A DNA stretch of 64,000 nucleotides from Pseudomonas sp. B21-040 (GTDB lineage: Bacteria > Pseudomonadota > Gammaproteobacteria > Pseudomonadales > Pseudomonadaceae), in assembly GCF_024748695.1 (NCBI RefSeq), contig NZ_CP087176.1:241501-305500 (forward strand). Direction: 5' to 3'. Below are positions 44,403-60,715 of the stretch, piece after piece (position 1 is the first letter of the stretch; the number at the start of each line of letters is the position of its first letter). The notes beneath the pieces were generated by a model. That model saw nothing but the letters and a program-made list of their open reading frames with translations, had not been told where the DNA came from and ran no database searches. Both the position numbers and the translations under genes were made by a program.

Positions 44403-44470
44403 ACAGCATCCCTTCAATCGTCTACTGGACGTTGAGAAGGCATCGACTGTTTCAGGTAGGAATCCAGCAT

Positions 44471-44818
44471 TTGAAGAGATTTGCTTTTGTAAGTGAAGCT
44501 GCAACACGGGAGTACAAGGCCTTGCCGGACTGGGTTCAGGATGAGTTTGGGAAAGACCTGATGCGTGTGCAGTACGGCGGGGATCCAGAGTTGGCAATAA
44601 AGCAGCTGAGTTCAATCGGGGCGGGGACGATTGAGATGATCATCAATGGTAGCCCGGCATACCGATGCATCTACATCACGAAGTATGCGGACACCATTTT
44701 CGTCCTTCATTCGTTCGTGAAGACGACGAATCGAACTGATCGTCACGCAATGGCAGTTGCGGAGGATCGGTTGAAGGAGCTCAAACGGGAGCTTCGGAAT
44801 ATGGAGTGGAACGTCTAG
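44471..44818 (+). CDS. Gp49/HigB-like toxin (RelE superfamily)
   Basis: 115 residues from TTG 44471 (AGGAA 8 nt upstream); an earlier TTG at 44432 is possible. KRFAFVSEAATREYKALPDWVQDEFGKDLMRVQYGGDP, then IGAGTIEMIINGSPAYRCIYITKYADTIFVLHSFVKTT is the phage-derived Gp49-like toxin pattern (mRNA interferase by family). The usual HigA partner would be downstream on the same strand; here the XRE gene is convergent, and both stops share CTAG. Confidence 0.8.
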   Translation: MKRFAFVSEAATREYKALPDWVQDEFGKDLMRVQYGGDPELAIKQLSSIGAGTIEMIINGSPAYRCIYITKYADTIFVLHSFVKTTNRTDRHAMAVAEDRLKELKRELRNMEWNV

Positions 44819-45138
44819 CAGGCGTGAGCTTGTGAAATGACTATCTGAGGCAACGCGCCAGCATCGTTGGATGGCAGAGTAAACGTGGTGCGAAAGCCGA
44901 GTTTATCCAGCATGTCCATCATTGCATCGATCGTAAACTTCTCGATTTTCCCAGTGGTGAGTTCAGAAACACGTGATTGGGTCACGTTCAACCTGGCTGC
45001 GGTCTCACTCTGTTTGAGGCCCAGTTTTTTGATGCACTCAGTGATGAAAATGGACAACTCCATTTTCAGAGCCATTTTGCTGGCGACTTCCTCGTCATGC
45101 GTGACATGGAACGGACTGTCGAAGAATTGGATTGCCAT
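44815..45138 (-). CDS. XRE-family HTH antitoxin (HigA-like)
   Basis: 107 residues from ATG 45136-45138, GGAGATTGCTC upstream. KLGLKQSETAARLNVTQSRVSELTTGKIEKFTIDAMMDMLDKLGF is a Cro/CI-type HTH of the HigA/XRE antitoxin class. It overlaps the toxin gene tail to tail at CTAG (44815-44818). A TTATC-N10-GATAA dyad (45163-45182) lies in its promoter region and may be its operator. Confidence 0.82.
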   Translation of the reverse strand: MAIQFFDSPFHVTHDEEVASKMALKMELSIFITECIKKLGLKQSETAARLNVTQSRVSELTTGKIEKFTIDAMMDMLDKLGFRTTFTLPSNDAGALPQIVISQAHAC

Positions 45139-45363
45139 GAGCAATCTCCTTTTTTAAATGGTTATCTAAAATTTACGATAAATGGAGGTTAGCGATTGAT
45201 CATTTTTGATGCAAACATTTTTTCGCCTGCCCCTAGCGCACTCATTACACCAAGTAACTAATGATGTTCCCGTCCCCACCTTTATCCCCTCCAGCTAACT
45301 CCCTACATTGAGCTCCAACGCCTACCCATTCATTCCGAAGGGCAGGTCACTGGAGATTCCCTC

Positions 45364-47065: not shown

Positions 47066-47528
47066 TTATTCCAGGTGCCATTGCGGTTGACGTTTCCAAT
47101 CGCCAGGAAAGCCCATCAGGCTTAAATTCGTTGATTCCAGATGCTCCATGATTTCTGCGAGACGAGGTTTCCACCGGCTGTCTGGACTGATCAAATCGGT
47201 TAGATACGCGAGGATCGTCAATACGATATAAAGCCGCTGTTTGGGCTGAGGTCTGCTGGCAGCTGCGTTTGGGATATTCCACTCTTTGGGTAGCGAGGGC
47301 CGAATTGAGAGTTCTCTGTTCCATAACCGCGAGTGGTGGGCGCAACAGTTTCGTATGAAGGTCAGGGTGTGGAGCCACGAAGCCAAAACATCGAACGGCA
47401 GACCGAATCTGGCGGCAATAGCTTTCTTGTCGGCACTTCTGCCTATGGCATTGAATAGGGTGGATACCGTACCGAGGCTGAGTTCTTCAAGAATGGCCCA
47501 TGCGGGCGGCAGTTCGGGAAAGGCATAG
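47066..47528 (-). pseudogene. Abi-family protein, 3' part (split by IS)
   Basis: Downstream half of an Abi_2/AbiD-F-type gene. Joining it to 48785-49311 after removing the IS and one TAG copy gives one uninterrupted frame (...YFRYYGATYAFPELPPAW...). This part carries RNCCAHHSRLWNR, which contains the HEPN RNxxxH motif (RNCCAH) of abortive-infection RNases. It ends at 47066. Confidence 0.85.
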
Positions 47529-47536
47529 TGCAGTGG

Positions 47537-48379
47537 TCAATTAATTCCGGACACCTCGATAGGTGGTTTCGACGCCATTGCCCGTTCGTAAACGGTCGGT
47601 GGCAGATATCCCAGTTTTGAGTGCAGCCGCTCGTTGTTGTAATACCCAACGATGTATTCAGTGATGTCACGTATCGCTTCGGCGTGGTTGGCGTAATCGC
47701 GCCGCCATACCCGCTCCATTTTCAAACTCAGGAAGAAGCGCTCCATCACTGAGTTGTCCCAACAGTTACCTTTACGGCTCATGCTTTGCTGCATGTTATT
47801 TCTTGTCAGCAGCGCCCTGTAGCTCGCGCTGGCGTACTGGCTACCGCGATCCGAGTGAGCGATCAGACCAAGTGGCGGTTGACGCTGAGCAACTGCCAGT
47901 TGCATGGCACTACACACCAGCTCGGCAGGCATGTTCGGGGCCATGGACCAACCCACGATCTTGCGTGAGAACAAGTCCAGTACCACGGCCAGGTACAGCC
48001 AGCCGCTACGGGTCCGGATATAGGTAATGTCCGCCACCCAAGCCTTGTTCACCGCCGCGGGTTCGAATTGACGATTCAACACATTTTCAGCGATCGGCAG
48101 GTCGTGGTTGCTATCGGTCGTGTGCACAAACTTGCGCTTCCAGGCCGAACGCAGACCGTTGGCGCGCATCAAGCGACGAATTTTATAAACGCCTATTTCC
48201 ATACCCTTAGCGCGCAACGCTTTACGCAACGGGCGACTGCCATAGCTGCCGCCACTCGCAGCAAACGACGCCTTGAGTTGCACAGTCACGGGACAAATCG
48301 AGGCTGGCGCTCCAGCACGCTTGTTGGCCTCGTAGAAACCGGATCGGCTGATACCCAGCAGCCGACAGACATACGCCAC
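47537..48379 (-). CDS. IS3-family transposase OrfB (DDE integrase)
   Basis: 280 residues from the first ATG, but the frame is open back to the A7 slip site at 48454-48460, so the active product is probably an OrfAB fusion. rve catalytic residues: Asp in AWVADITYI, Asp in AHSDRGSQY and Glu in NCWDNSVMERFF. Uninterrupted, so the element is probably active. Confidence 0.93.
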   Translation of the reverse strand: MAYVCRLLGISRSGFYEANKRAGAPASICPVTVQLKASFAASGGSYGSRPLRKALRAKGMEIGVYKIRRLMRANGLRSAWKRKFVHTTDSNHDLPIAENVLNRQFEPAAVNKAWVADITYIRTRSGWLYLAVVLDLFSRKIVGWSMAPNMPAELVCSAMQLAVAQRQPPLGLIAHSDRGSQYASASYRALLTRNNMQQSMSRKGNCWDNSVMERFFLSLKMERVWRRDYANHAEAIRDITEYIVGYYNNERLHSKLGYLPPTVYERAMASKPPIEVSGIN

Positions 48380-48420
48380 CGAATAAGCCTTCTGTTGCAG
48401 CTGACGAACCAGGCGATACG

Positions 48421-48747
<327 letters not shown>

Positions 48748-48781
48748 CTATCGAGGTGTCCGGGGAAATTAGACCACTACA

Positions 48782-49311
48782 TAGGTCGCACCGTAGTATC
48801 GAAAATAGTTATCACGCATGCGGTTTTCGATTCTCTGCTGCTGAAGGCCGTCGTCCTGTCGCCCTTTCTTGATACGGTCCGTTTCACGTTCGAATTTATT
48901 TCGCTCTTTGCTCAATTGGTCCCGAAGGGGGCGTAAGAGTTCGGTGTGCGAATAGGACGAGGAGAACACCGAGGCATCGGCGATCCAGTCAGACCCATAC
49001 TTGGGGCACATGTGGCTGCTGATGCTTGCTCGTATCGCGACCTCGACCCTCTCGATGGCGTCCATGGTTATGCGCCGCAACGCCCCATCGAATCGGTAGA
49101 TGTCGACTACGGCTTTCAGAGTGCTACCGGGTTTGAAGGTATGTTCTGGCCCTTGCTCTTGGAAGGGGCGCATATAGGGGCTCAGGCGAAACAGCGTGAC
49201 CACTTCGAGAAAGCGCATGGCCCGGTCGTTGTTTGCGACTTGCAGGCCTCGTTGCTTTAGCAGTTCCAATTGCTGTTCTACGCTGAGGGCCGGTTTGTCG
49301 AAGGACCTCAT
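48782..49311 (-). pseudogene. Abi-family protein, 5' part (split by IS)
   Basis: ATG 49309-49311 with GGAG upstream. MRSFDKPALSVEQQLELLKQRGL, then VTLFRLSPYMRPFQEQGPEHTF and VVDIYRFDGALRRITMDAIERVEVAIRAS match the start of Abi_2 (AbiD/AbiF) proteins. The frame is lost at the IS edge (48781). Before insertion the gene coded for about 330 residues (49311-48785 plus 47528-47066). Confidence 0.87.
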
Positions 49312-49544
49312 GTAGCTTTTCTCCAGGCAAAAAAAACCCGCACGATTTGAGCTTGCTGACTGGGTCAACCTAGGCTTGGCGGGTGTGTTGGGGTGCATTA
49401 TAGGTAGGTGTGAGACCCCGTCAACGTTGCACTGACGCGAATTTGTAACGATTAGGTGTGCGGGCAATGTTTGGTCTGGCGCTGGAGGTAAGGTTTTGTT
49501 GGCTTCTATAGAAGCCAATGTGTTGGCGTCCCGGGGACTGTCTC

Positions 49545-49593
49545 CAAACCCCAGAAACAACAAAGCCCTCATATTTCTACGAGGGCTTTTTTT
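49545..49593 (+). terminator. Terminator, right copy of the direct repeat flanking the abi locus
   Basis: CAAACCCCAGAAACAACAAAG then GCCCTC-ATATTTCTAC-GAGGGC and T7. It differs from 47006-47052 by a few bases plus two extra As/Cs. No gene is seen upstream of it on the plus strand. Confidence 0.82.
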
Positions 49594-49612
49594 ATGTTGC
49601 CCGCAACATTCG

Positions 49613-49825
49613 CTACAGACAAGAAAGCTCCACATCTTCGTCGTCGGGGACTTCGTCCGTAACAATCACTCGTGCGTGCGCGCTGTGCTCTTCCTCCATG
49701 CGCAACCCGAAGTAGCGGGTATCGTTGGCGTCCCAAAATGCCTCTATCTGCGCCATGGGTGCATGTTCCAGCAGCACCTCGGCGCTGTGCTCCAAGATGA
49801 TCGAGTAACGTCGTTCGGTGTTCAT
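49613..49825 (-). CDS. Small hypothetical protein
   Basis: 70 residues from ATG 49823-49825 (MNTERRYSIILEHSAEVLLEHAP); no strong ribosome site. The acidic C-terminus (DEVPDDEDVELSCL) and short length fit a small regulatory or antitoxin-like protein, but no domain is recognised. Alternative starts lie upstream. Confidence 0.45.
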   Translation of the reverse strand: MNTERRYSIILEHSAEVLLEHAPMAQIEAFWDANDTRYFGLRMEEEHSAHARVIVTDEVPDDEDVELSCL

Positions 49826-50034
49826 TACAAAGGGGCTCGCAACGGCGGAGTGAAGTGGCAGATTGTGCATAAGCACTGCTGCCATTATGCCGCCTCACTG
49901 ATTTTCGACCGTAACCGCTCATCGTTTCGGGGAGGTATGTAGATGCGCGGTACCAGAATGGGATGCGTCGACTCGCGTCTTTGATGAATATGACCATCCT
50001 TCAGCGAGACGGGCGAGCGTAAGACCCATAAACG

Positions 50035-50065
50035 AAAAAGGCCCACCTTTCGGTGAGCCTTTTTC
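50035..50065. terminator. Terminator at the island edge
   Basis: AAAAAGGCCCACC-TTTC-GGTGAGCCTTTTT: symmetrical stem with A and T tracts, so it can work both ways. Confidence 0.8.
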
Positions 50066-50073
50066 GATATTGC

Positions 50074-50099
50074 GTATGGTGCGGCACCAGGAATCGAAC
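50074..50099. other. Island attachment site, distal copy (attL-like)
   Basis: GTATGGTGCGGCACCAGGAA plus TCGAAC, a near copy of the 3' end of tRNA-Thr (60637-60663: one C missing and one G to A). The rest of the tRNA is not present. With the integrase next to the tRNA it defines an island of about 10.6 kb. Confidence 0.8.
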
Positions 50100-50352: not shown

Positions 50353-53300
50353 TCATGGACGCTCCGCGGCTTTAAGCCAGTCATTCATGCCATCGACACC
50401 CAAAGTCAGCAGCGAATCCTGCATCGCTACCACCCGCTGTAGCATGGCACTACCGTCTGACTCCTCCTGTTCTTCAGCCTGCGCGAAAAGGCGTGTTAGC
50501 AGTTGCGTGAGGTTGTTTTCATGGTCGTATAGATAGGGTTTTGTTTGCCGAACAAAATCAAGGTAAATCTCGGTTGCTTCTAATGCATACATTGGATCGT
50601 GATGTGACATAGCGTTCAGCCATGCATCGAAGCCATAGATGTCGTTTCGTGCAGAATCACTTTCTGTTCCTAGCAAGAACAAGCAGCGCCGAATTAACTC
50701 AATGGGTATAGCAACCAGCGGTGTTGCCTCCTGGAAGAGGTTGCGGAATTTTTGGGCAACTGCAACAGCATAATGATTTTCTGCATCCAAGCCGGCCTCA
50801 AGACCGGCGAGACACTGTTCCCGGTGCTGCTGAATGTTGTCGCTGTGAGTCCAAACGCTCGCTGCACCGTGCCACGCTTCGACGGTTTCCCCAGCGTCGA
50901 GTCCTGCGAGAAGGGTAGAAAACTCCAATCTCTTCGAAAGAGATGCCAGTGCAGATATACGCCCCCAAGTCTCAAAATCCTTTTTGCTGCCTTCGCGATA
51001 AAGGCGTGCTAGCCACAAAGCGACAATTTCGAACTTTTGGTGGTAAGCGTAATACAGGCTAGATTCGGCTATTGGCCAAAGTCCGGGGGATATCTCCTGC
51101 ATGGCAAGGCCAAACAGCTCCCAGCCAAGTTCTGGGTGATGGCTTTGCAAATAGGGCATGCGCCGCAGCAATAGGGCGCGAATAGCTGGGTGCGGGTCTG
51201 CGGCAAATATGCGCAGCACGTTCGGTAGCAATTGGGGCCACGGTACGCCGTTCTTTTCAAGTTGATTGGCCACGATCATCAAGGCTTCCGCTGCGTTACC
51301 TTTGGCCATATTGATGCCCGCTGTGACCAAATCAACGGAATCCCCTGAGATGGAGCTCTCCTCCTGTAGTGTAGAAAAATCCGCAGCCAAGGACACTAGC
51401 CGCGTAGCGTCCTGTGACAGTTCAACTACGTGCGCACAGCTCTGTATTGCTTTAGATGCGACGCGGTTGTGGTGCCAATGACTCGGATGCGTTTCCAGCT
51501 CATTCAGGATTTGCTGCGCCAGCGCTGCAGCATTGGGCTCATCTTTGGGTGACCAAGTGCCATTTACCTGCAAGTTGCCGTAGCGGTGAGCCAGGTAGGT
51601 CGCAATGCCCTCCATGAGGTCGTTTCGAAAGCGGTCCGAGATCCGCTCCCAGTTGGCTGATAAAAGACTCATAAAACGGGTGGGGTGGCGCGAAGCCGCC
51701 TCACGCAATTGTGAGCCAACCTCTCTCTCACCCCCCATCAGAAAGTCATCAAAAGGGCTTCTGACATGCGCTTTGTAGTGATTCAGTAGGTCCAGCACGG
51801 AGTCATCGCTTGCACCAAGAAACACTTCGAAAGAAAACGGTGCGCTAACCATTCCTCCTCGCATGTGAATGTCCGGCTGGCGAAGCAGAGGCCATATTTC
51901 TTTTTCGCATTCGTCCAATACAGCCTGTGCATCGGCTGAACGCAGATGGCAGGGGATGGTAAGAATTAGTTGCGCTTGATCTCGTAGCGCCCATGCATGG
52001 TGCTTCGGGTCAGTTGTAGTTTCCCAGTGAAGGGTTAAAACGGTCGAATGTATTGCGTCTTGCGTAGCCGAATCAAGGTGCAGAAAAGTGGTTTGTATCA
52101 GCGTGCCGAGTTCATACGACAAAGAGGATTCGAGCAGTTTTTTGTTGCAAAGCATACGGCCAATCACATCCAGATTTGCGGCTGGTGCTGCCATGCACGC
52201 GAGGATGGCGAAATAGCGTAATGCGCCTTCTGTGCTGAAGCACAGACGTTCGCTGTTGCTTTGCCACCAATTCGATTGAGTGTTTGCGTGATGCACGATG
52301 GCGGTTTCAACGGCATCCAGCAGTATGCGTTCACTTTCAAGGTGCCGGTGGTCGGTCTGGGTATGTGCGTCGTTGTATGACGTTTGGTGCAGGAAACCGC
52401 TCCAAAAGTTTTTAGGAGCCTCACCATAGCTTGAGTTCTTGATTTGGCTCCATCGCTCAATCGATGCTATAGCCAGGTCAAGCAATGCCGTGGACTTTCG
52501 CATTCGATCTGCAAGAAAACTGTTATTGCTTGTCCCAAAGTCATGCGGTTGACAGTGCAGTTTTTTGCCAAAGCTATAGGCGAGCACATCATCATCGGTG
52601 ACTTCGTCAGCGACATAGCGCCATAGAACCGTATCGTCCATACCTCCATCGTTTACGCAGCGTGCGAGTGCACGCCCAAGAAAGCTGTGTTCTTGCCTCG
52701 GTAACTTAAGCAATTCGACAAGCAAAGGCACAAGCACCGCCGAATGGTCTGCATGGACTTGCGTGATCGCATGTGCAATAGAATTTGTCAGCTGGGTATT
52801 GTCCACCCCATCCAGCGCCAGCATTTCGGTCCAAAATGCGAACACCCCTACAGCATCGTCATTTTTCCATTGAGACACCCGGTGCACATGCATCGTTAAC
52901 CCGTCAACATCGCGGGTATCTCTCAAAAAAGGTACTAGATGCTTCATCCAAAAGTGATGCCATTCCACCCGAACCGCCAGGGTGTAGATCACCTGAAACA
53001 CATCACGATGCTGGTTGCGCAGGTCGCGTATTAAAAGCCAGTCGTCATCGTGTGGAGGCTGTTCTGAAAAGGTTTCCGCCACAAGACGGCGAATGTGGAA
53101 GGCGTTGTTGCCTGTCAAAACAGTACGCAACTGCTTTCGGAATTCGCGCCGATCTCCGGTTGCCAGCTGCGTGACAAAGCTACGAATGCTGGGGCGCACA
53201 AAAGGCACAGGCGGTAAACGTTGTATGAATGCGTTCAAAGTCACAGCTTGGCGCACCGCGCCGCTGATCACCAACACGTCGAGCAGGGTTTGGTGTCCGA

Positions 53301-54927
53301 ATGTCAGCTGCCCATCTTGCGTCTCATGCAGCACCTTATTACTGAGAAGCGCACGTTCAATATCTTGTGAGGCGGTGAATCGCTGACGTGGCACTGCAAG
53401 ACTGCGCAACTTTAGCATTTCAGCAGCGATGGCTTCGATGGCTTGCATGGCGGCATGGCCCAGTGTGCTATTAGCCTGCACGATCGTGGCAAGGTAGCGC
53501 TGTGCCAGCGCTTGGCTGGTCACTACATTGAAGCTACCTCCTTGCTGCGCTAATTCAACAAACAAGGCCAATTCACGTGGATTACAAATTAATTCGCGCG
53601 TGGTCGCATCGATGGTCGATGCGTCAATGCTGAGTTTTGCGAGCAGCGGCGCTATCTCGGTATCCCATTCCAATGGCTGGCAAGTGATTTTTTTACCCCA
53701 ACTGCGCTGGGCAATACGTCGATCGTAATGACAGTCAAAATCGCGACAGGCAGTGACGACGGTAATATTGGGGACCAGCAGCAGACGATCAATTTGGGCA
53801 AGGAAGTACGTAAGTACGCTGTGTTCACGGGCAATGGAAAGTACATCTAACGAGTCGATCATCACGACTACGTGCCCATCCTCCGCCATGCGTGCCGCTT
53901 CTTCTACCCATTGTTCAGACAGGCCTAGGGCTTGACGGTCTTGCGCAGTGACGATGTCGGCGAACTCGCGCGATTGAATGAACAGCGGCAGCAGGTCAGT
54001 GCGGGTTTTGGCAAGTTGCTCCAGTGCTTCTTGCACTGCCAGCATCACGCAGGTCTTGCCGGAGCCTGGCAAGCCAGTGAGCAAGATAGAGCCATGTTTG
54101 GCTTCAATGGCTTCGATGAGCTCGTTGACGGATGGATTCGAAATGCTTTCACTGCCAATATCTCGGCGCCATGACCGGCCAATGGCAGAAGTGCTTTTGA
54201 ATGAAGTACGAACCTTTACCATGTCCATGGGAGGGGTCAGCATTGAGCCTGCTTTGTCCAGCAAGTCTGTCAGGTTGTCCTTTGTCAATCGATGTTGCGT
54301 CGCGCTACTTTCGCCGTGGCCGCGAATGCGCATTCCGAGGTAGTCAAGGCGTGTCCATAGAGTGTTGTAAGCCGCTGAACCGTTGCTTACCAGCCGCCAC
54401 AAACGTTCGCGCAGAAATGCCTCCATGCGATCCAGTTCTGGACTGATTTCAAACGTCGTGCGTTGTAGGAACTGGTAGGTCGAAAGATTTGACGCCTGTT
54501 CGACAAGCAGATTTCCTAGTTCGGTATCTGACTCTTGAAGGGCCTTGCCCAGATTGGTTTGGTAGGTCGCTTCATCGGCATAGTTGGTGCTGTATTCCCG
54601 CAATCTTGAGAGATCACCAAACGCGCTGCGCGAATAGAAGCGAATTTCCGCTGTCGGGTCGCTGGTCAACAAGCTGATTGCCTTGCGCAATTCGTCGGCG
54701 AGGTCGGCGGTAGACCAGGCCTTATGCAGCGTCTGGTTTTTTTTGCATTGGCAGTAAATTTTGGTGCCATCTACTTTGCCGATCACCACATCGTCCACTG
54801 ACCAGCTTACGGAATCTACTTCAAGCCACTGGTAACCAGGATCCGAAAGAATGCTCAACGCCCAGTCAAAGGCAACCAGCGTTTGGTAACCATCGCCTCG
54901 ATTGGACTGAATCCCTGCTTTGCTCAT
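50353..54927 (-). CDS. Avs-like STAND NTPase with Cap4/DUF4297-type nuclease domain
   Basis: 1524 residues; AGGA lies 8 nt before ATG. Residues 1-165 resemble Cap4/DUF4297 nucleases: RGDGYQTLVAFDWAL (8-24), Asp45-Asp46 and QCK (Gln60-x-Lys62), a PD-(D/E)xK pattern. A NACHT/STAND ATPase follows: Walker A GLPGSGKT (285-292), Walker B VVVMIDSLD (353-361) and TACRDFD (392-398). About 1000 residues of helical repeats complete it. This layout is that of Avs antiviral STAND proteins, where the C-terminus senses a phage protein (terminase or portal) and the N-terminal nuclease kills the cell. It is alone on its strand except for the recombinase pair upstream (gap 520 nt). It could be a different STAND defence family. 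Confidence 0.8.
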   Translation of the reverse strand: MSKAGIQSNRGDGYQTLVAFDWALSILSDPGYQWLEVDSVSWSVDDVVIGKVDGTKIYCQCKKNQTLHKAWSTADLADELRKAISLLTSDPTAEIRFYSRSAFGDLSRLREYSTNYADEATYQTNLGKALQESDTELGNLLVEQASNLSTYQFLQRTTFEISPELDRMEAFLRERLWRLVSNGSAAYNTLWTRLDYLGMRIRGHGESSATQHRLTKDNLTDLLDKAGSMLTPPMDMVKVRTSFKSTSAIGRSWRRDIGSESISNPSVNELIEAIEAKHGSILLTGLPGSGKTCVMLAVQEALEQLAKTRTDLLPLFIQSREFADIVTAQDRQALGLSEQWVEEAARMAEDGHVVVMIDSLDVLSIAREHSVLTYFLAQIDRLLLVPNITVVTACRDFDCHYDRRIAQRSWGKKITCQPLEWDTEIAPLLAKLSIDASTIDATTRELICNPRELALFVELAQQGGSFNVVTSQALAQRYLATIVQANSTLGHAAMQAIEAIAAEMLKLRSLAVPRQRFTASQDIERALLSNKVLHETQDGQLTFGHQTLLDVLVISGAVRQAVTLNAFIQRLPPVPFVRPSIRSFVTQLATGDRREFRKQLRTVLTGNNAFHIRRLVAETFSEQPPHDDDWLLIRDLRNQHRDVFQVIYTLAVRVEWHHFWMKHLVPFLRDTRDVDGLTMHVHRVSQWKNDDAVGVFAFWTEMLALDGVDNTQLTNSIAHAITQVHADHSAVLVPLLVELLKLPRQEHSFLGRALARCVNDGGMDDTVLWRYVADEVTDDDVLAYSFGKKLHCQPHDFGTSNNSFLADRMRKSTALLDLAIASIERWSQIKNSSYGEAPKNFWSGFLHQTSYNDAHTQTDHRHLESERILLDAVETAIVHHANTQSNWWQSNSERLCFSTEGALRYFAILACMAAPAANLDVIGRMLCNKKLLESSLSYELGTLIQTTFLHLDSATQDAIHSTVLTLHWETTTDPKHHAWALRDQAQLILTIPCHLRSADAQAVLDECEKEIWPLLRQPDIHMRGGMVSAPFSFEVFLGASDDSVLDLLNHYKAHVRSPFDDFLMGGEREVGSQLREAASRHPTRFMSLLSANWERISDRFRNDLMEGIATYLAHRYGNLQVNGTWSPKDEPNAAALAQQILNELETHPSHWHHNRVASKAIQSCAHVVELSQDATRLVSLAADFSTLQEESSISGDSVDLVTAGINMAKGNAAEALMIVANQLEKNGVPWPQLLPNVLRIFAADPHPAIRALLLRRMPYLQSHHPELGWELFGLAMQEISPGLWPIAESSLYYAYHQKFEIVALWLARLYREGSKKDFETWGRISALASLSKRLEFSTLLAGLDAGETVEAWHGAASVWTHSDNIQQHREQCLAGLEAGLDAENHYAVAVAQKFRNLFQEATPLVAIPIELIRRCLFLLGTESDSARNDIYGFDAWLNAMSHHDPMYALEATEIYLDFVRQTKPYLYDHENNLTQLLTRLFAQAEEQEESDGSAMLQRVVAMQDSLLTLGVDGMNDWLKAAERP

Positions 54928-55448: not shown

Positions 55449-55745
55449 CTATAGATGCTGACCTTGGCCTACAACTTTGAAATGCCATGGCTTACCTAAG
55501 CGAATAGTGAGCAAATGCACGGTCAGCAGATAGTAATAGCGCGTGGATTCACTGCGCTGGTTCAGGTGCTGATTTAGAAACCAGTCGATATGTTTTCGCT
55601 GCCAGGTCCATGGATTATCTCGGTGCCAGCGAAAATAAATAGCCGCTTGAATGGCCTTCGCCTGACGAAGGTGACGCTTGCGGGTGGAATGCGATCCGGT
55701 CAGAACGCCCACCAGGAACAGCTTCATATCGAATGGCTTGCTCAT
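55449..55745 (-). CDS. Small protein coupled to a tyrosine recombinase
   Basis: 98 residues (MSKPFDMKLFLVGVLTGSHSTRKRHL). The ATG overlaps the stop of the recombinase by 4 nt. A region KAIQAAIYFRWHRDNPWTWQRKHIDWFLNQHL is helical and reminiscent of a SAM-like core-binding domain of recombinases, suggesting a helper of the recombinase. I do not recognise the family by name. Confidence 0.65.
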   Translation of the reverse strand: MSKPFDMKLFLVGVLTGSHSTRKRHLRQAKAIQAAIYFRWHRDNPWTWQRKHIDWFLNQHLNQRSESTRYYYLLTVHLLTIRLGKPWHFKVVGQGQHL

Positions 55746-56722
55746 GCTCGACCACCGATGTAAGCCGATACCACGTCGATACGGCCGTGCCCGAGTTCAT
55801 AGCTGATTTGTATGCGTGCCTCTCGATCAAGGCCTGGATCGAGGCGCTTGCACCTGCCACCGTTGATGGGCGCTAGGTGATGGGTGATCTGCTCATAGCG
55901 TTCGCACGCATAAGCCGCGCGCAGTTCGTGGAAGCCTTTGAGGTTGTACGTATGGAGGATGTCTCGGGCGGGGCGTACGACATGTTGCTGGAAATCGAGG
56001 TAGCTCTCGTTCGGAGCTAGTAGGTTGTGGCTACCATGCGGTAGGACCTGCTCGGCATATCTGAGCGCTTCGCGAACATGGTCATCTACGATGATCCAGC
56101 GAGGTGCTGTTGCTCCGCCGCGACCACCTTTGGTGCCGTCCTGGATGTTGATCCTCTCGAGTTGCTTGGCTTCCCGCTGTAGTCGAGGAAGGTCGGCCAA
56201 AATCGCTTCACGCAAACGCATGCCGGTGGCTCGCGCTAACTTAGCGATGGCCGCAGCGCGCGGCTGCTGATGTTCGCAAAGCTCGTCGACGATCCGCTTC
56301 ACGTATTCGCGGTCTTGGCCTTGCGGCACTAAGCGACGAACACTGGCCCGATGCATTCCCAACGCCTTGCTTGGGCTCGGCACTTTCACAGACTGATCAC
56401 CGCGAAGCGCGGCCATAGTTCTGTTCACACTGGACAATCGGTTTTGCGCAGTCGCGATGCCGATAGCTCCTTGTTCGACTTGCTGGCGCAGATGCCTGGC
56501 GTAGTCCAGCAAGGTCTGCCGAACAATTTTCCGCGCATCGTTGAACCCTGGCCCATCCTCCGAGCGACACCAGCGCACAAAGGCCAGCCAGCGATCACTG
56601 TGCGCTTGGACAGTCCCGTAATGCCCGCCGCCGAACATGTCTTTCAACGCCTGCGGCCCGGCGTAGCTCAATTGCCGGCCATAGCCAAAATTGCGCCCAT
56701 CCCGTTTACCGACCAGCGCCAT
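55742..56722 (-). CDS. Tyrosine recombinase (Integrase_1 type)
   Basis: 326 residues from ATG 56720-56722 (AGGAG upstream). Catalytic pattern of tyrosine recombinases: Arg in ATGMRLREAIL, His-x-x-Arg in FHELRAAYACERY, His in YELGHGRIDVVSAYIGG and the Tyr in SAYIGG. N-terminal SAM-like core-binding domain (RWLAFVRWCRS...). This type is found in Pseudomonas genomic islands and ICEs. It is in the same element as a separate P4-type integrase, so it may have another task (dimer resolution or capture). Confidence 0.85.
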   Translation of the reverse strand: MALVGKRDGRNFGYGRQLSYAGPQALKDMFGGGHYGTVQAHSDRWLAFVRWCRSEDGPGFNDARKIVRQTLLDYARHLRQQVEQGAIGIATAQNRLSSVNRTMAALRGDQSVKVPSPSKALGMHRASVRRLVPQGQDREYVKRIVDELCEHQQPRAAAIAKLARATGMRLREAILADLPRLQREAKQLERINIQDGTKGGRGGATAPRWIIVDDHVREALRYAEQVLPHGSHNLLAPNESYLDFQQHVVRPARDILHTYNLKGFHELRAAYACERYEQITHHLAPINGGRCKRLDPGLDREARIQISYELGHGRIDVVSAYIGGRA

Positions 56723-57012
56723 GATCAAACTCCTCTCGAAGACAAAACTTTTAAAACCTTCCCCACGTCATCCCGCCATGGATGTTGAGTGTTATCAGGG
56801 ATCAAGGCCCCTGCGACCTGTGAGGGTTGTCCACTAACGCGGGACTGGCGGCTCTTTACGACCGGGAGCTTGGGCATCTCATGATCTGGCCTCCTGAACA
56901 CTTCCGAGGAAGTGGGCGGGTGGGGGCTGCATAGGCTGACGAAACCAACGCCGCGAGATCCTGAGTCAGGTGAGGGCAGTGAAGCGATGACCGGGGCATG
57001 CCTGACTGTCAG

Positions 57013-57590: not shown

Positions 57591-58011
57591 CGCGTGGACG
57601 AGCGGATCAGCGAAATCTCGAAAATGTACGCGGACTCCGCTGCGGGATTATTCCGCCCCAGCTGTTATGGCATGCAGGATCATTTTGCGGTGGGTCGGGA
57701 GCTCCAGAGCCTCAATCAAGGAATGGGGGTGTAAGGGTTGACGGTGATTCCTTGGTCCCGAGGGGTTTTCCAAAATTGAGGAGCATCAGAAGGTTCTACG
57801 TCGCCTAAAAATTGGAATATTAATTTAATCAATTGGTTATATATATTCACGAAAATAAAAAGATGCCAAGGTAACCAGTGGGGGTCATAGTTTATGGGAA
57901 TGGGCTAGGCAAATCTTAAATTTCACTGGCGAAAGATATTGACTTTTGATATTATTTATAAATATAAATTACACTGTAAGCAATGGCTTTACAGAGAATG
58001 GGGTAGTACGA

Positions 58012-58593
58012 ATGGCTAACACGGCACGAAACCGCCTTGTTAACGCGATTATTTTCTTTGCTGATAACACTAAGGTCTGCGGGAAAATAAAACTTTTTAA
58101 GCTTCTATATCTACTTGATTTTGAGCATTTTCGTCAAACAGGGAAGAGTGTTACAGGTGGCGATTATCAGGCGTGGAAGTTTGGGCCAGTACCCATTGAT
58201 CTTATGGAGGAGTGGGAAGAGTTAAATGATGACCTTGCCGGCTTAGTGACTATAGTTTCAGAGCAAGTAGTCGATTATGTTCGCCAAAAAGTAGTGGTCA
58301 AAGAAGGTATAAGCTTTGATGATGAGGAGTTTACACCAAGGCAACTTCGAATCATGAATAATCTTGTTAGCCGCTACAAAGAAACATTTTCCCCTAAAAT
58401 GATCGATGTCACTCATGAGCAAAACGGCGCTTGGGATAAAATCTGGAACAACGGTAATGGGGCACATAAACCTATACCCTACGAACTCTCGATCAAAGAA
58501 GACGCACCAGAAAGAGAAGACCTATTAGCAATAGCATCTGAGAATGCAATGTACCAAGCAGCCCTCGCTGCTGCACGCCAAGAGTCCGTTTGA
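58012..58593 (+). CDS. Panacea (SocA-like, DUF4065) antitoxin
   Basis: 193 residues from ATG 58012 (MANTARNRLVNAIIFFADN). KIKLFKLLYLLDFEHFRQTGKSVTGGDYQAWKFGPVP is the Panacea/DUF4065 signature, found in antitoxins of varied toxin partners. Low GC (about 42 percent) suggests recent transfer. The next gene starts 3 nt after its stop. Confidence 0.88.
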   Translation: MANTARNRLVNAIIFFADNTKVCGKIKLFKLLYLLDFEHFRQTGKSVTGGDYQAWKFGPVPIDLMEEWEELNDDLAGLVTIVSEQVVDYVRQKVVVKEGISFDDEEFTPRQLRIMNNLVSRYKETFSPKMIDVTHEQNGAWDKIWNNGNGAHKPIPYELSIKEDAPEREDLLAIASENAMYQAALAAARQESV

Positions 58594-58596
58594 ATT

Positions 58597-59049
58597 ATGG
58601 TTGGGCTGAATTTAGCGCCAGCTCAGATCTGGCAAGACGATTGTTATTATCTAAACGAAGAAACTGGGTGTTGTGAGCGAAAATATTGGATTATTCTAGC
58701 ACTTAGTCCAGATCAAGAAGACCTAGTTACTGCTGTTTTCACTTCTAAATCGAATGGGCTGATCGAGAATCCGGCGTGCTCACTGGGCCCGCCCAGAGCA
58801 GGCTACTATGTGGGTGCGCCAGGCAATATTCTTCTACTCCCTAGCTGGGTGGATTTTAGCAGTGTTAAGTTTTTAGATGTTTATGATCTAAAACTCCATA
58901 TAAAACAAAAACGCACACATCTAACCAGTCAGACGCTTTCTTCTGATGTTTTCTGTGGAATCCTCCGATGTGCGCTACAGAGCGAAGATATAATTAAGAA
59001 GCAGGCTCGTTGGATTGGCGATACAGCAGCGTCTCTTGGCTGCAAATAA
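58597..59049 (+). CDS. Candidate toxin of the Panacea pair (unrecognised family)
   Basis: 150 residues, 3 nt after the antitoxin stop. LAPAQIWQDDCYYLNEETG, ERKYWIILALSPDQEDLVTAVFTSKSNGL and PGNILLLPSWVDFSSVKFLDVYDLK have the alternating strand pattern of PemK/MazF-like SH3 folds, where such proteins are RNases. No definitive family match; role inferred from operon with Panacea. Confidence 0.6.
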   Translation: MVGLNLAPAQIWQDDCYYLNEETGCCERKYWIILALSPDQEDLVTAVFTSKSNGLIENPACSLGPPRAGYYVGAPGNILLLPSWVDFSSVKFLDVYDLKLHIKQKRTHLTSQTLSSDVFCGILRCALQSEDIIKKQARWIGDTAASLGCK

Positions 59050-59144: not shown

Positions 59145-60467
59145 TTACTCTATTCCGCCACGTTTTGACTTTAGACGAGTGACGTTCGCTCCGGTCTGAT
59201 TTGAAAATTCGTGTGGAGTGACATGCTCCTGCCGGTTGGCCTCCAGGTACCGGCTCCACCAGTTCATGATCAGCCTGCGCTCCTCGATGAACTCGGCCTT
59301 GTGGATATAAGCGGCGCGGACGTTGTTCCGCTCCTTGTGGCTCATCTGCCGTTCAATGGCTGTCTCCGACCACAATCCTGACTCGATCAGTGCGCTGCAT
59401 GCCATCGAACGAAACCCATGCCCGCAGATATCGGTTTTGGTGTCGTATCCCATCGTTCGTAGCGCATTGTTCACGGTATTTTCGGACATGGGTTTCCAGG
59501 GTTTGGCATCACCTGCGAAGACCAATGCGAATTTGCCTGTGAGTGCATGGATTTTTTCGAGTAGCGCCACTGCTTGCGGCGATAAGGGTACTAAATGGAT
59601 ATCCCCTGCCATCTTCGTACCCCTTGTGGAAAAGGGTACTCCCTCCAACGCGGGTCGAGTGTCCGGTATCTCCCAGGTGCCGCGCTTGAGGTCGAACTCG
59701 CTCCAGCGTGCAAAACGCAGCTCGCTGGATCGTACAAACACATGGAGCGACAGCATCACCGTCAGACGGGTAAGTGCCCGGCCTTTATAGGTGTCGATCC
59801 GCTCCTGCAGTTCCGGCAGTCGCGATAAGGGTAGAGCGGGGCGATGTACCACCCGCGGGGCTTTGATCGAGCCTTCGAGATCGTAAGCAGGGTTTATGGT
59901 GATAAGCCGGAGGCGCTTTGCCTCGCGCATGATGCTCTGCAGGTAGTTTTGTACCCTTAAAGCAACGTCTATCGTTCCGCGCTTCTTGATCTCTTCCAAG
60001 GGCTGCATAAGGTCATGAGTGTCGAGGTCGACAATGGCGCGGGTGCCGATCAGCGGGAAAACGTGGGTTTTGAGGCGGCTCATCACAGTCTTGGAGTGGC
60101 CTGGTGCCCACTTGGCCGACATTTCCGTGTGCCAGTCCAGCGCAACGCTTTCAAAGGTTCTGCCTTTGATCACGGCTTCCGCCTTGGCTTGGTGCTTGGT
60201 CTCTATGGGATCAATGCCATCCGCCAGCATTCGCTTGACCTCCAAGCGCTTGCGGCGCGCATCGGCGAGGCCAATGACGGGGTAGTTGCCGAACGAGGTC
60301 AGTCCTTCCCGTCCGTCGGGTTTGACGTAACGGAGCCGCCAGCCTTTGCGGCCATTAGGTTGGACTAGGAGGTAGAGGCCATCGCCGTCGAAAAGCTTGT
60401 AGGCGCGGTCTGTAGGTTTTGCCAAGCGGCAAGCTGCGTCAGAGAGCGGAGCTGTGGTGCGCGACAT
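59145..60467 (-). CDS. P4-type tyrosine integrase (DUF4102 N-terminus)
   Basis: 440 residues. N-terminus LSDAACRLAKPTDRAYKLFDGDGLYLLVQPNGRKGWRLRY is the DUF4102 arm; catalytic residues Arg in RSSELRFARW, His-x-x-Arg in HGFRSM and QMSHKERNNVRAAYIHKAEF (His, Tyr). It lies 172 nt from tRNA-Thr and points away from it, as in P4-type islands. It would integrate the element at the tRNA 3' end. Confidence 0.95.
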   Translation of the reverse strand: MSRTTAPLSDAACRLAKPTDRAYKLFDGDGLYLLVQPNGRKGWRLRYVKPDGREGLTSFGNYPVIGLADARRKRLEVKRMLADGIDPIETKHQAKAEAVIKGRTFESVALDWHTEMSAKWAPGHSKTVMSRLKTHVFPLIGTRAIVDLDTHDLMQPLEEIKKRGTIDVALRVQNYLQSIMREAKRLRLITINPAYDLEGSIKAPRVVHRPALPLSRLPELQERIDTYKGRALTRLTVMLSLHVFVRSSELRFARWSEFDLKRGTWEIPDTRPALEGVPFSTRGTKMAGDIHLVPLSPQAVALLEKIHALTGKFALVFAGDAKPWKPMSENTVNNALRTMGYDTKTDICGHGFRSMACSALIESGLWSETAIERQMSHKERNNVRAAYIHKAEFIEERRLIMNWWSRYLEANRQEHVTPHEFSNQTGANVTRLKSKRGGIE

Positions 60468-60596: not shown

Positions 60597-60639
60597 CGGG
60601 GGTTCTAGAGATTTTGAAAGCCTTCTCTGGAACCTTGTA

Positions 60640-60715
<76 letters not shown>

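What the first reader, a model, noticed from the sequence alone, without database searches (positions are those of the whole stretch)
50353..54927. Large Avs-like STAND protein with a Cap4/DUF4297-type nuclease head in a tRNA island
Seen: Asp46...Gln60-x-Lys62 nuclease pattern, Walker A at 285-292, Walker B at 353-361 and about 1000 residues of helical repeats. Known: Avs proteins use this order to sense a phage protein and trigger nuclease-mediated abortive infection. Inferred: an antiphage sensor. The helical C-terminus shows no motif that tells which phage protein it senses, so it may form a new sensor class.
Basis: partly seen in the sequence, partly recalled or inferred. Interest (0 to 1): 0.82.

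Follow-up and report, generated by a model that had tools for sequence, protein, structure and literature searches.

The report
Phage-sensing suicide nuclease on mobile island
A large bacterial protein that looks like an intracellular virus sensor, with a DNA-cutting head, a molecular switch and a long sensing arm, rides on a small mobile DNA element at a tRNA gene; a close relative already has solved structures, so it is a good new example of a known kind of immune protein, and what it senses is the open question.

The parts
50353..54927 (-). STAND protein gene, 1524 aa (P0001)
   Evidence: ORF and translation; 910 homologues at E<=1e-3, the 120 listed mostly 1519-1527 aa; full-length relative in the PDB
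54238..54927 (-). residues 1-230: Cap4/DUF4297-type PD-(D/E)xK nuclease head
54736..54795 (-). residues 45-64: putative catalytic D45/D46 ... Q60-x-K62
   Evidence: invariant in 235 of 235; catalytic role inferred from the fold
53533..54141 (-). residues 263-465: STAND/NACHT-like P-loop ATPase
   Evidence: Pfam AAA PF00004 27.8 bits over cut-off 21.2; NACHT 18.5 below its cut-off 26.7; Avs, NLR and also other AAA+ fold matches
54052..54075 (-). Walker A, residues 285-292 GLPGSGKT
53845..53871 (-). Walker B, residues 353-361
53239..53532 (-). residues 466-563: helical and winged-helix-like part with invariant H545
   Evidence: secondary structure of the model; H545 in 235 of 235; equivalence to the NLR MHD histidine is inferred
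50356..53238 (-). residues 564-1524: HEAT-like solenoid, presumed sensor
   Evidence: all-helical model, pLDDT 83, pTM 0.50; HEAT/ARM fold matches
55449..55745 (-). 98-aa ORF of the same cassette, function unknown
   Evidence: relatives in L004, L006, L007 next to the same recombinase; no Pfam or PADLOC match
55742..56728 (-). tyrosine recombinase (Integrase_1), 328 aa
   Evidence: PF12835 E 3.4e-10; relatives in L004, L006, L007 upstream of the STAND gene
57946..58593 (+). Panacea/SocA-like gene
   Evidence: PF13274 E 9.8e-17
58597..59049 (+). 150-aa ORF, possible partner of the Panacea gene
   Evidence: no family above cut-off; partnership inferred from adjacency
59145..60467 (-). phage-type integrase, 440 aa
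   Evidence: three integrase domains above cut-off; 90% identical in L006
60640..60715 (-). tRNA-Thr (TGT), attachment site
50074..50099 (-). copy of the tRNA-Thr 3' end, far end of the element
   Evidence: best match to the 27-base tRNA end outside the tRNA itself, score 42 against 23 for the next unrelated site; alignment

Best explanation
A single-protein, Avs-like antiphage sensor. At rest the HEAT-like solenoid and the ATPase keep the Cap4-type nuclease head inactive. A phage product made during infection binds the solenoid, the ATPase switches state and the protein multimerises, the heads come together and cut double-stranded DNA, and the infected cell dies or loses its DNA. It travels as cargo of a tRNA-Thr integrative element. 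Shown here: domain order, fold of the head and ATPase (as models), invariant motifs, mobile context. Inferred: ATP switching, multimerisation, DNA cleavage, phage trigger, cell death.
Confidence: 0.75

Rival explanations
1. A divergent relative of Avs4 (or Avs3): the solenoid is an old Avs sensor that has lost sequence similarity and still reads the phage portal or terminase.
For: Avs4 8dgf is the Foldseek best hit for residues 1-660 (E 3.4e-13). Avs4 8dgf_A aligns with the solenoid over 637 residues at rmsd 8.2 A, the longest alignment of the 50 rows shown, and the chain lengths are similar (1541 residues).
Confidence: 0.2
2. Defence against plasmids or rival integrative elements rather than phages: the sensor reads a replication or transfer protein of incoming elements.
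For: The gene lies on an element at a tRNA-Thr site next to a second stretch with AbiD and an IS element; relatives also occur on conjugative cyanobacterial plasmids.
Against: The closest architectures with known triggers (Avs1-5) sense phage proteins, as stated in passages of PMC12931631 and PMC12724215; the neighbours found are antiphage types or candidates.
Confidence: 0.12
3. A nuclease that stabilises its own element (addiction or incompatibility), not an immune sensor.
For: The 7.5 kb version in L007 carries little besides recombinase, ~100-aa ORF and this gene, and no PADLOC neighbour was found there; a Panacea antitoxin-like gene lies in the window element.
Against: A 1524-aa protein with a ~960-aa conserved solenoid is far larger than addiction toxins I know of; the family also occurs away from this recombinase (L005 and L008 share only the gene region itself with the window at DNA level).
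Confidence: 0.07

Closest known systems
PDB 9n00 / 9n01 / 9yix, 'AAA family ATPase', 1523 aa
   Same: Full-length relative, aligned 1-1524 to 1-1523 at 1993 bits, same motifs
   Different: About 60% identical (its 98% look-alike P0122, shares 59% with P0001); source organism and reported function not found; not seen among the fold matches, whose library ends 2026-04-08
Avs3 (8dgc, bound to phage PhiV-1 terminase)
   Different: 2028 residues against 1524; no Avs profile hit here; trigger here unknown
Avs4 (8dgf, bound to phage PhiV-1 portal)
   Same: Similar length and order; Foldseek best hit of the N-terminal part; solenoid alignable over 637 residues
   Different: No sequence-level relationship detected; solenoid match not discriminating
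DUF4297-HerA, LmuA, Cap4 nucleases
   Same: Fold of the head; LmuA profile in relatives
   Different: There the head is fused to or works with other partners (HerA, Lamassu, SAVED); here it sits on a STAND-like ATPase
Avs5 (SIR2-STAND, 9jap)
   Different: SIR2 NADase head instead of a nuclease (passages of PMC12931631)

Membership tests
STAND / NACHT-like ATPases | P-loop ATPase with Walker A, Walker B, sensor Arg, NP motif and winged-helix His | tested here: met
   residues present and invariant in 235 of 235, P450 in 230 of 235. Naming the residues after NLR motifs is recalled knowledge
STAND / NACHT-like ATPases | closer to STAND/NACHT than to other AAA+ ATPases | tested here: inconclusive
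Cap4/DUF4297-type PD-(D/E)xK nucleases | fold of the nuclease domain | tested here: met
Cap4/DUF4297-type PD-(D/E)xK nucleases | acidic residue ... E/Q-x-K core conserved | tested here: met
   D45, D46, Q60, K62 in 235 of 235; D46 and Q-x-K kept in distant L010 and L012
Cap4/DUF4297-type PD-(D/E)xK nucleases | metal-dependent dsDNA cleavage | not testable with these tools
   needs purified protein
Avs (AVAST) | N-terminal effector, central STAND ATPase, C-terminal repeat sensor in one protein | tested here: met
   that the repeats are a sensor is inferred
Avs (AVAST) | match to a named Avs profile | tested here: inconclusive
   P0001: none at E<=1 in PADLOC, none at E<=0.1 in NCBIfam. 16 family members: none in PADLOC at E<=0.01; none among the 25 NCBIfam families listed, a list that is capped. 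That these libraries hold Avs models is recalled, and no Avs sequence was scanned as a positive control
Avs (AVAST) | direct binding of a conserved phage protein (terminase or portal in Avs1-4) | not testable with these tools
   indirect only: T7 terminase, portal and capsid queries show no chain of 9n00, 9n01 or 9yix in the PDB, which excludes little
Avs (AVAST) | protection against phage | not testable with these tools
   needs plating
tRNA-associated integrative element | integrase or recombinase beside a tRNA gene and a repeat of the tRNA 3' end at the far end | tested here: met
   tRNA-Thr and phage-type integrase; repeat at 50074-50099; repeats also in L006 and L007, L007 with the 327-aa recombinase only

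The most novel reading that the evidence does not exclude
The family is a further class of Avs-type sensor beyond Avs1-5, whose HEAT solenoid reads a phage product other than terminase or portal, and whose effector end is exchangeable: nuclease in proteobacteria, Akkermansia and a Nostoc plasmid, caspase on Tolypothrix and Nostoc carneum plasmids, with the ATPase and solenoid kept.
Probability: 0.4. Interest if true: 0.65.

Novelty: new member of a known kind. Interest (0 to 1): 0.47.

Why it matters
STAND proteins are the bacterial counterparts of animal and plant NLRs. This family is large (910 homologues at E<=1e-3 among 7988 scored), the listed ones keep their length almost exactly, and a relative has an experimentally solved structure, so the trigger can be sought directly. 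The natural swap of nuclease for caspase on the same ATPase and solenoid would let one test whether the sensor half works independently of the effector. The 7.5 kb element in L007 suggests that the sensor by itself can be the cargo of a mobile element.

Tried and rejected
Exact-word search for an att repeat (12 bases or more) found none at the right place; the repeat is diverged, with one gap, and appeared only through relatives. PDB codes 9N00/9N01, 9YIX and the names Avs6, Avs7, AVAST type 6/VI, Avs-like gave no paper about this family; eight searches by topic, judged by their listings (one search listed 25 of 300), also showed none. Only open-licence PMC papers to 5 Aug 2026 were searched. 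Passages of PMC12799240 and PMC7159879 were seen and did not bear on this protein. Guessing the trigger from co-deposited chains: T7 terminase, portal and capsid queries listed no 9n00/9n01/9yix chain; inconclusive. E. coli genomes: no DNA match to 2000 bases of the gene. Phages: no tblastn match. Entropy along the solenoid showed blocks that vary more (701-725, 951-975, 1326-1350, 1376-1425), too evenly spread to name a trigger site. In the structural second look of the solenoid rows other than Avs4 are eukaryotic or designed HEAT/ARM-like proteins; nothing is concluded from families not listed. I rejected 'unknown family' because of the PDB entries. I set aside 'ordinary AAA+ unfoldase' because of the nuclease head and the ~960-residue solenoid, although the ATPase fold alone does not separate the two.

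Full report
WHAT IS THERE. The ORF lies on the minus strand, 54927 to 50353, ATG start, 1524 aa. Of 240 proteins held (P0001 and the listed hits of two protein searches), 235 of 1480-1570 aa were aligned; 5 were dropped by length. D45, D46, Q60, K62, K63, the Walker A residues tested, D358, D361, R395, N449, H545 and R578 are identical in 235 of 235, and P450 in 230 of 235. These are top-listed hits, so near relatives. In a set of 16 reaching down to 26% identity, Q60 is kept in at least 90%, and D46 and Q-x-K are seen in Akkermansia L010 and Nostoc L012.

NOT A BLANK SPOT. A PDB sequence search finds one relative over the whole length: 9n00, 9n01 and 9yix, 'AAA family ATPase', 1523 aa, 1993 bits. 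The three entries hold six such chains. They are not among the fold matches shown, whose library ends 2026-04-08, so I infer later release. Two searches for codes or names and eight by topic showed no paper on them in the open-licence PMC library. A homologue search with that chain lists relatives named as Brenneria, Pectobacterium, Serratia, Citrobacter, Salmonella, Erwinia, Xanthomonas and Pseudomonas.

THE ELEMENT. Nucleotide comparison with relatives exposed what an exact-word search had missed. The 3' end of tRNA-Thr (60637-60663) recurs at 50074-50099 with one mismatch and one missing base; it is the best match outside the tRNA itself (score 42; next unrelated site 23). Beyond the copy lies a hairpin-like stretch that in L004 follows its tRNA-Thr directly, as expected if the element inserted between tRNA and terminator. 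The element (about 10.6 kb) carries integrase, Panacea-like gene, a 150-aa ORF, a second tyrosine recombinase, a 98-aa ORF and the STAND gene. Relatives of recombinase and 98-aa ORF precede the STAND gene in L004, L006 and L007, each on a contig with the same tRNA-Thr (the printout was cut); in L004 further genes, one a Cap15/2TM effector, stand between them and the STAND gene. In Pseudomonas sp. NFIX28 (L007) tRNA and repeat are only about 7.5 kb apart, with little else between them than recombinase, ~100-aa ORF and STAND gene. L005 and L008 share only the gene region with the window at DNA level.

CONTEXT AND SPREAD. Selected neighbours in 7 loci were scanned (10 proteins each, some twice; not all ORFs, no control set). 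Defence-type matches occur in 5 of 7: AbiD in the window (E 1.1e-28, outside the element) and intact in L006 (2.6e-57), which are one and the same neighbour, Cap15 in L004 (4.1e-16; PADLOC 2TM effector 6.7e-24), PDC-M60A/C in L008 (6.8e-109, 1.7e-94) and MkoC in L010 (2.7e-73). L005 (4 ORFs) and L007 (5 ORFs) gave none in PADLOC. The gene is rare and patchy: 2 of 57 relatives, 4 of 369 of the class, 3 of 398 of the phylum, the window's own genome counted each time. No phage record matched.

HEAD SWAP. Ten plasmid records matched by tblastn. In four of them (Nostoc carneum, Microchaete, two Tolypothrix) only residues 231-1521 match, at about 33%. Two were opened: the Tolypothrix PCC 7601 protein (L011, 1709 aa) and the Nostoc carneum protein (L013, 1711 aa) both begin with a caspase domain (Peptidase_C14, residues 3-245, E 1.6e-12 and 1.2e-11). 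L011 has FAGHG at 96 and DCC at 149 and keeps only a remnant of the nuclease before the ATPase. Nostoc sp. MS1 (L012) keeps the nuclease head, but its gene is split by an IS630 transposase.

MECHANISM. Shown: order of parts, modelled folds, invariant motifs, mobility. Inferred from the families: ATP-controlled opening, multimerisation, dsDNA cleavage and cell death. Passages of PMC11291478 report dsDNA degradation by the DUF4297 complex with Mg, its need for the PD-(D/E)xK residues, and a comparison of the DUF4297 dimer with the Avs3 Cap4 tetramer. Passages of PMC12931631 and PMC12724215 describe Avs1-4 as sensing terminase, portal or another phage protein. The trigger here is unknown.

VERDICT. 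A well-supported Avs-like STAND protein with a Cap4-type head on a defined tRNA-Thr element; activity untested; family already represented in the PDB. The claim of a new sensor class stays open: no Avs profile matched, but no Avs sequence was on hand as a positive control.

Noticed in passing
window 47066-49665 (-): An AbiD/Abi_2-type gene is interrupted by an IS3-family element (transposase 47537-48379); an intact relative sits in L006 11262-12227. It lies beyond the att repeat, so outside the STAND element.
   Followed up: partly
window about 50030-50073: The stretch that directly follows tRNA-Thr in L004 (3480-3525, hairpin plus T-run) lies here on the far side of the att repeat, as if the tRNA's terminator had been displaced by the insertion.
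   Followed up: yes
L011 6828-11957; L013 6828-11963: Cyanobacterial plasmid relatives with a caspase head in place of the nuclease on the same ATPase and solenoid; in L011 caspase-nSTAND1 genes lie on both sides.
   Followed up: partly
L006 1820-11025: A contig binned as Formivibrio (MAG) carries the tRNA-Thr, integrase, recombinase and STAND gene at 85-96% DNA identity to the window: recent transfer between distant hosts or a wrongly binned Pseudomonas-type contig.
   Followed up: no
G005 C1:4603690-4610882 (L002, L003): In the only other genome of the 57 with a match, the homologue (52-60% identity) is in two parts about 2.6 kb apart.
   Followed up: no
window 57946-59049 (+): Panacea/SocA-like gene followed by a 150-aa ORF: possibly a toxin-antitoxin pair with an undescribed partner.
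   Followed up: no
window 44432-45144: Gp49-like toxin-type gene (PF05973); the stretch 44858-45129 beside it is 76% identical to L004 4367-4638, which lies by the tRNA-Thr there, perhaps a trace of a second, older insertion.
   Followed up: no
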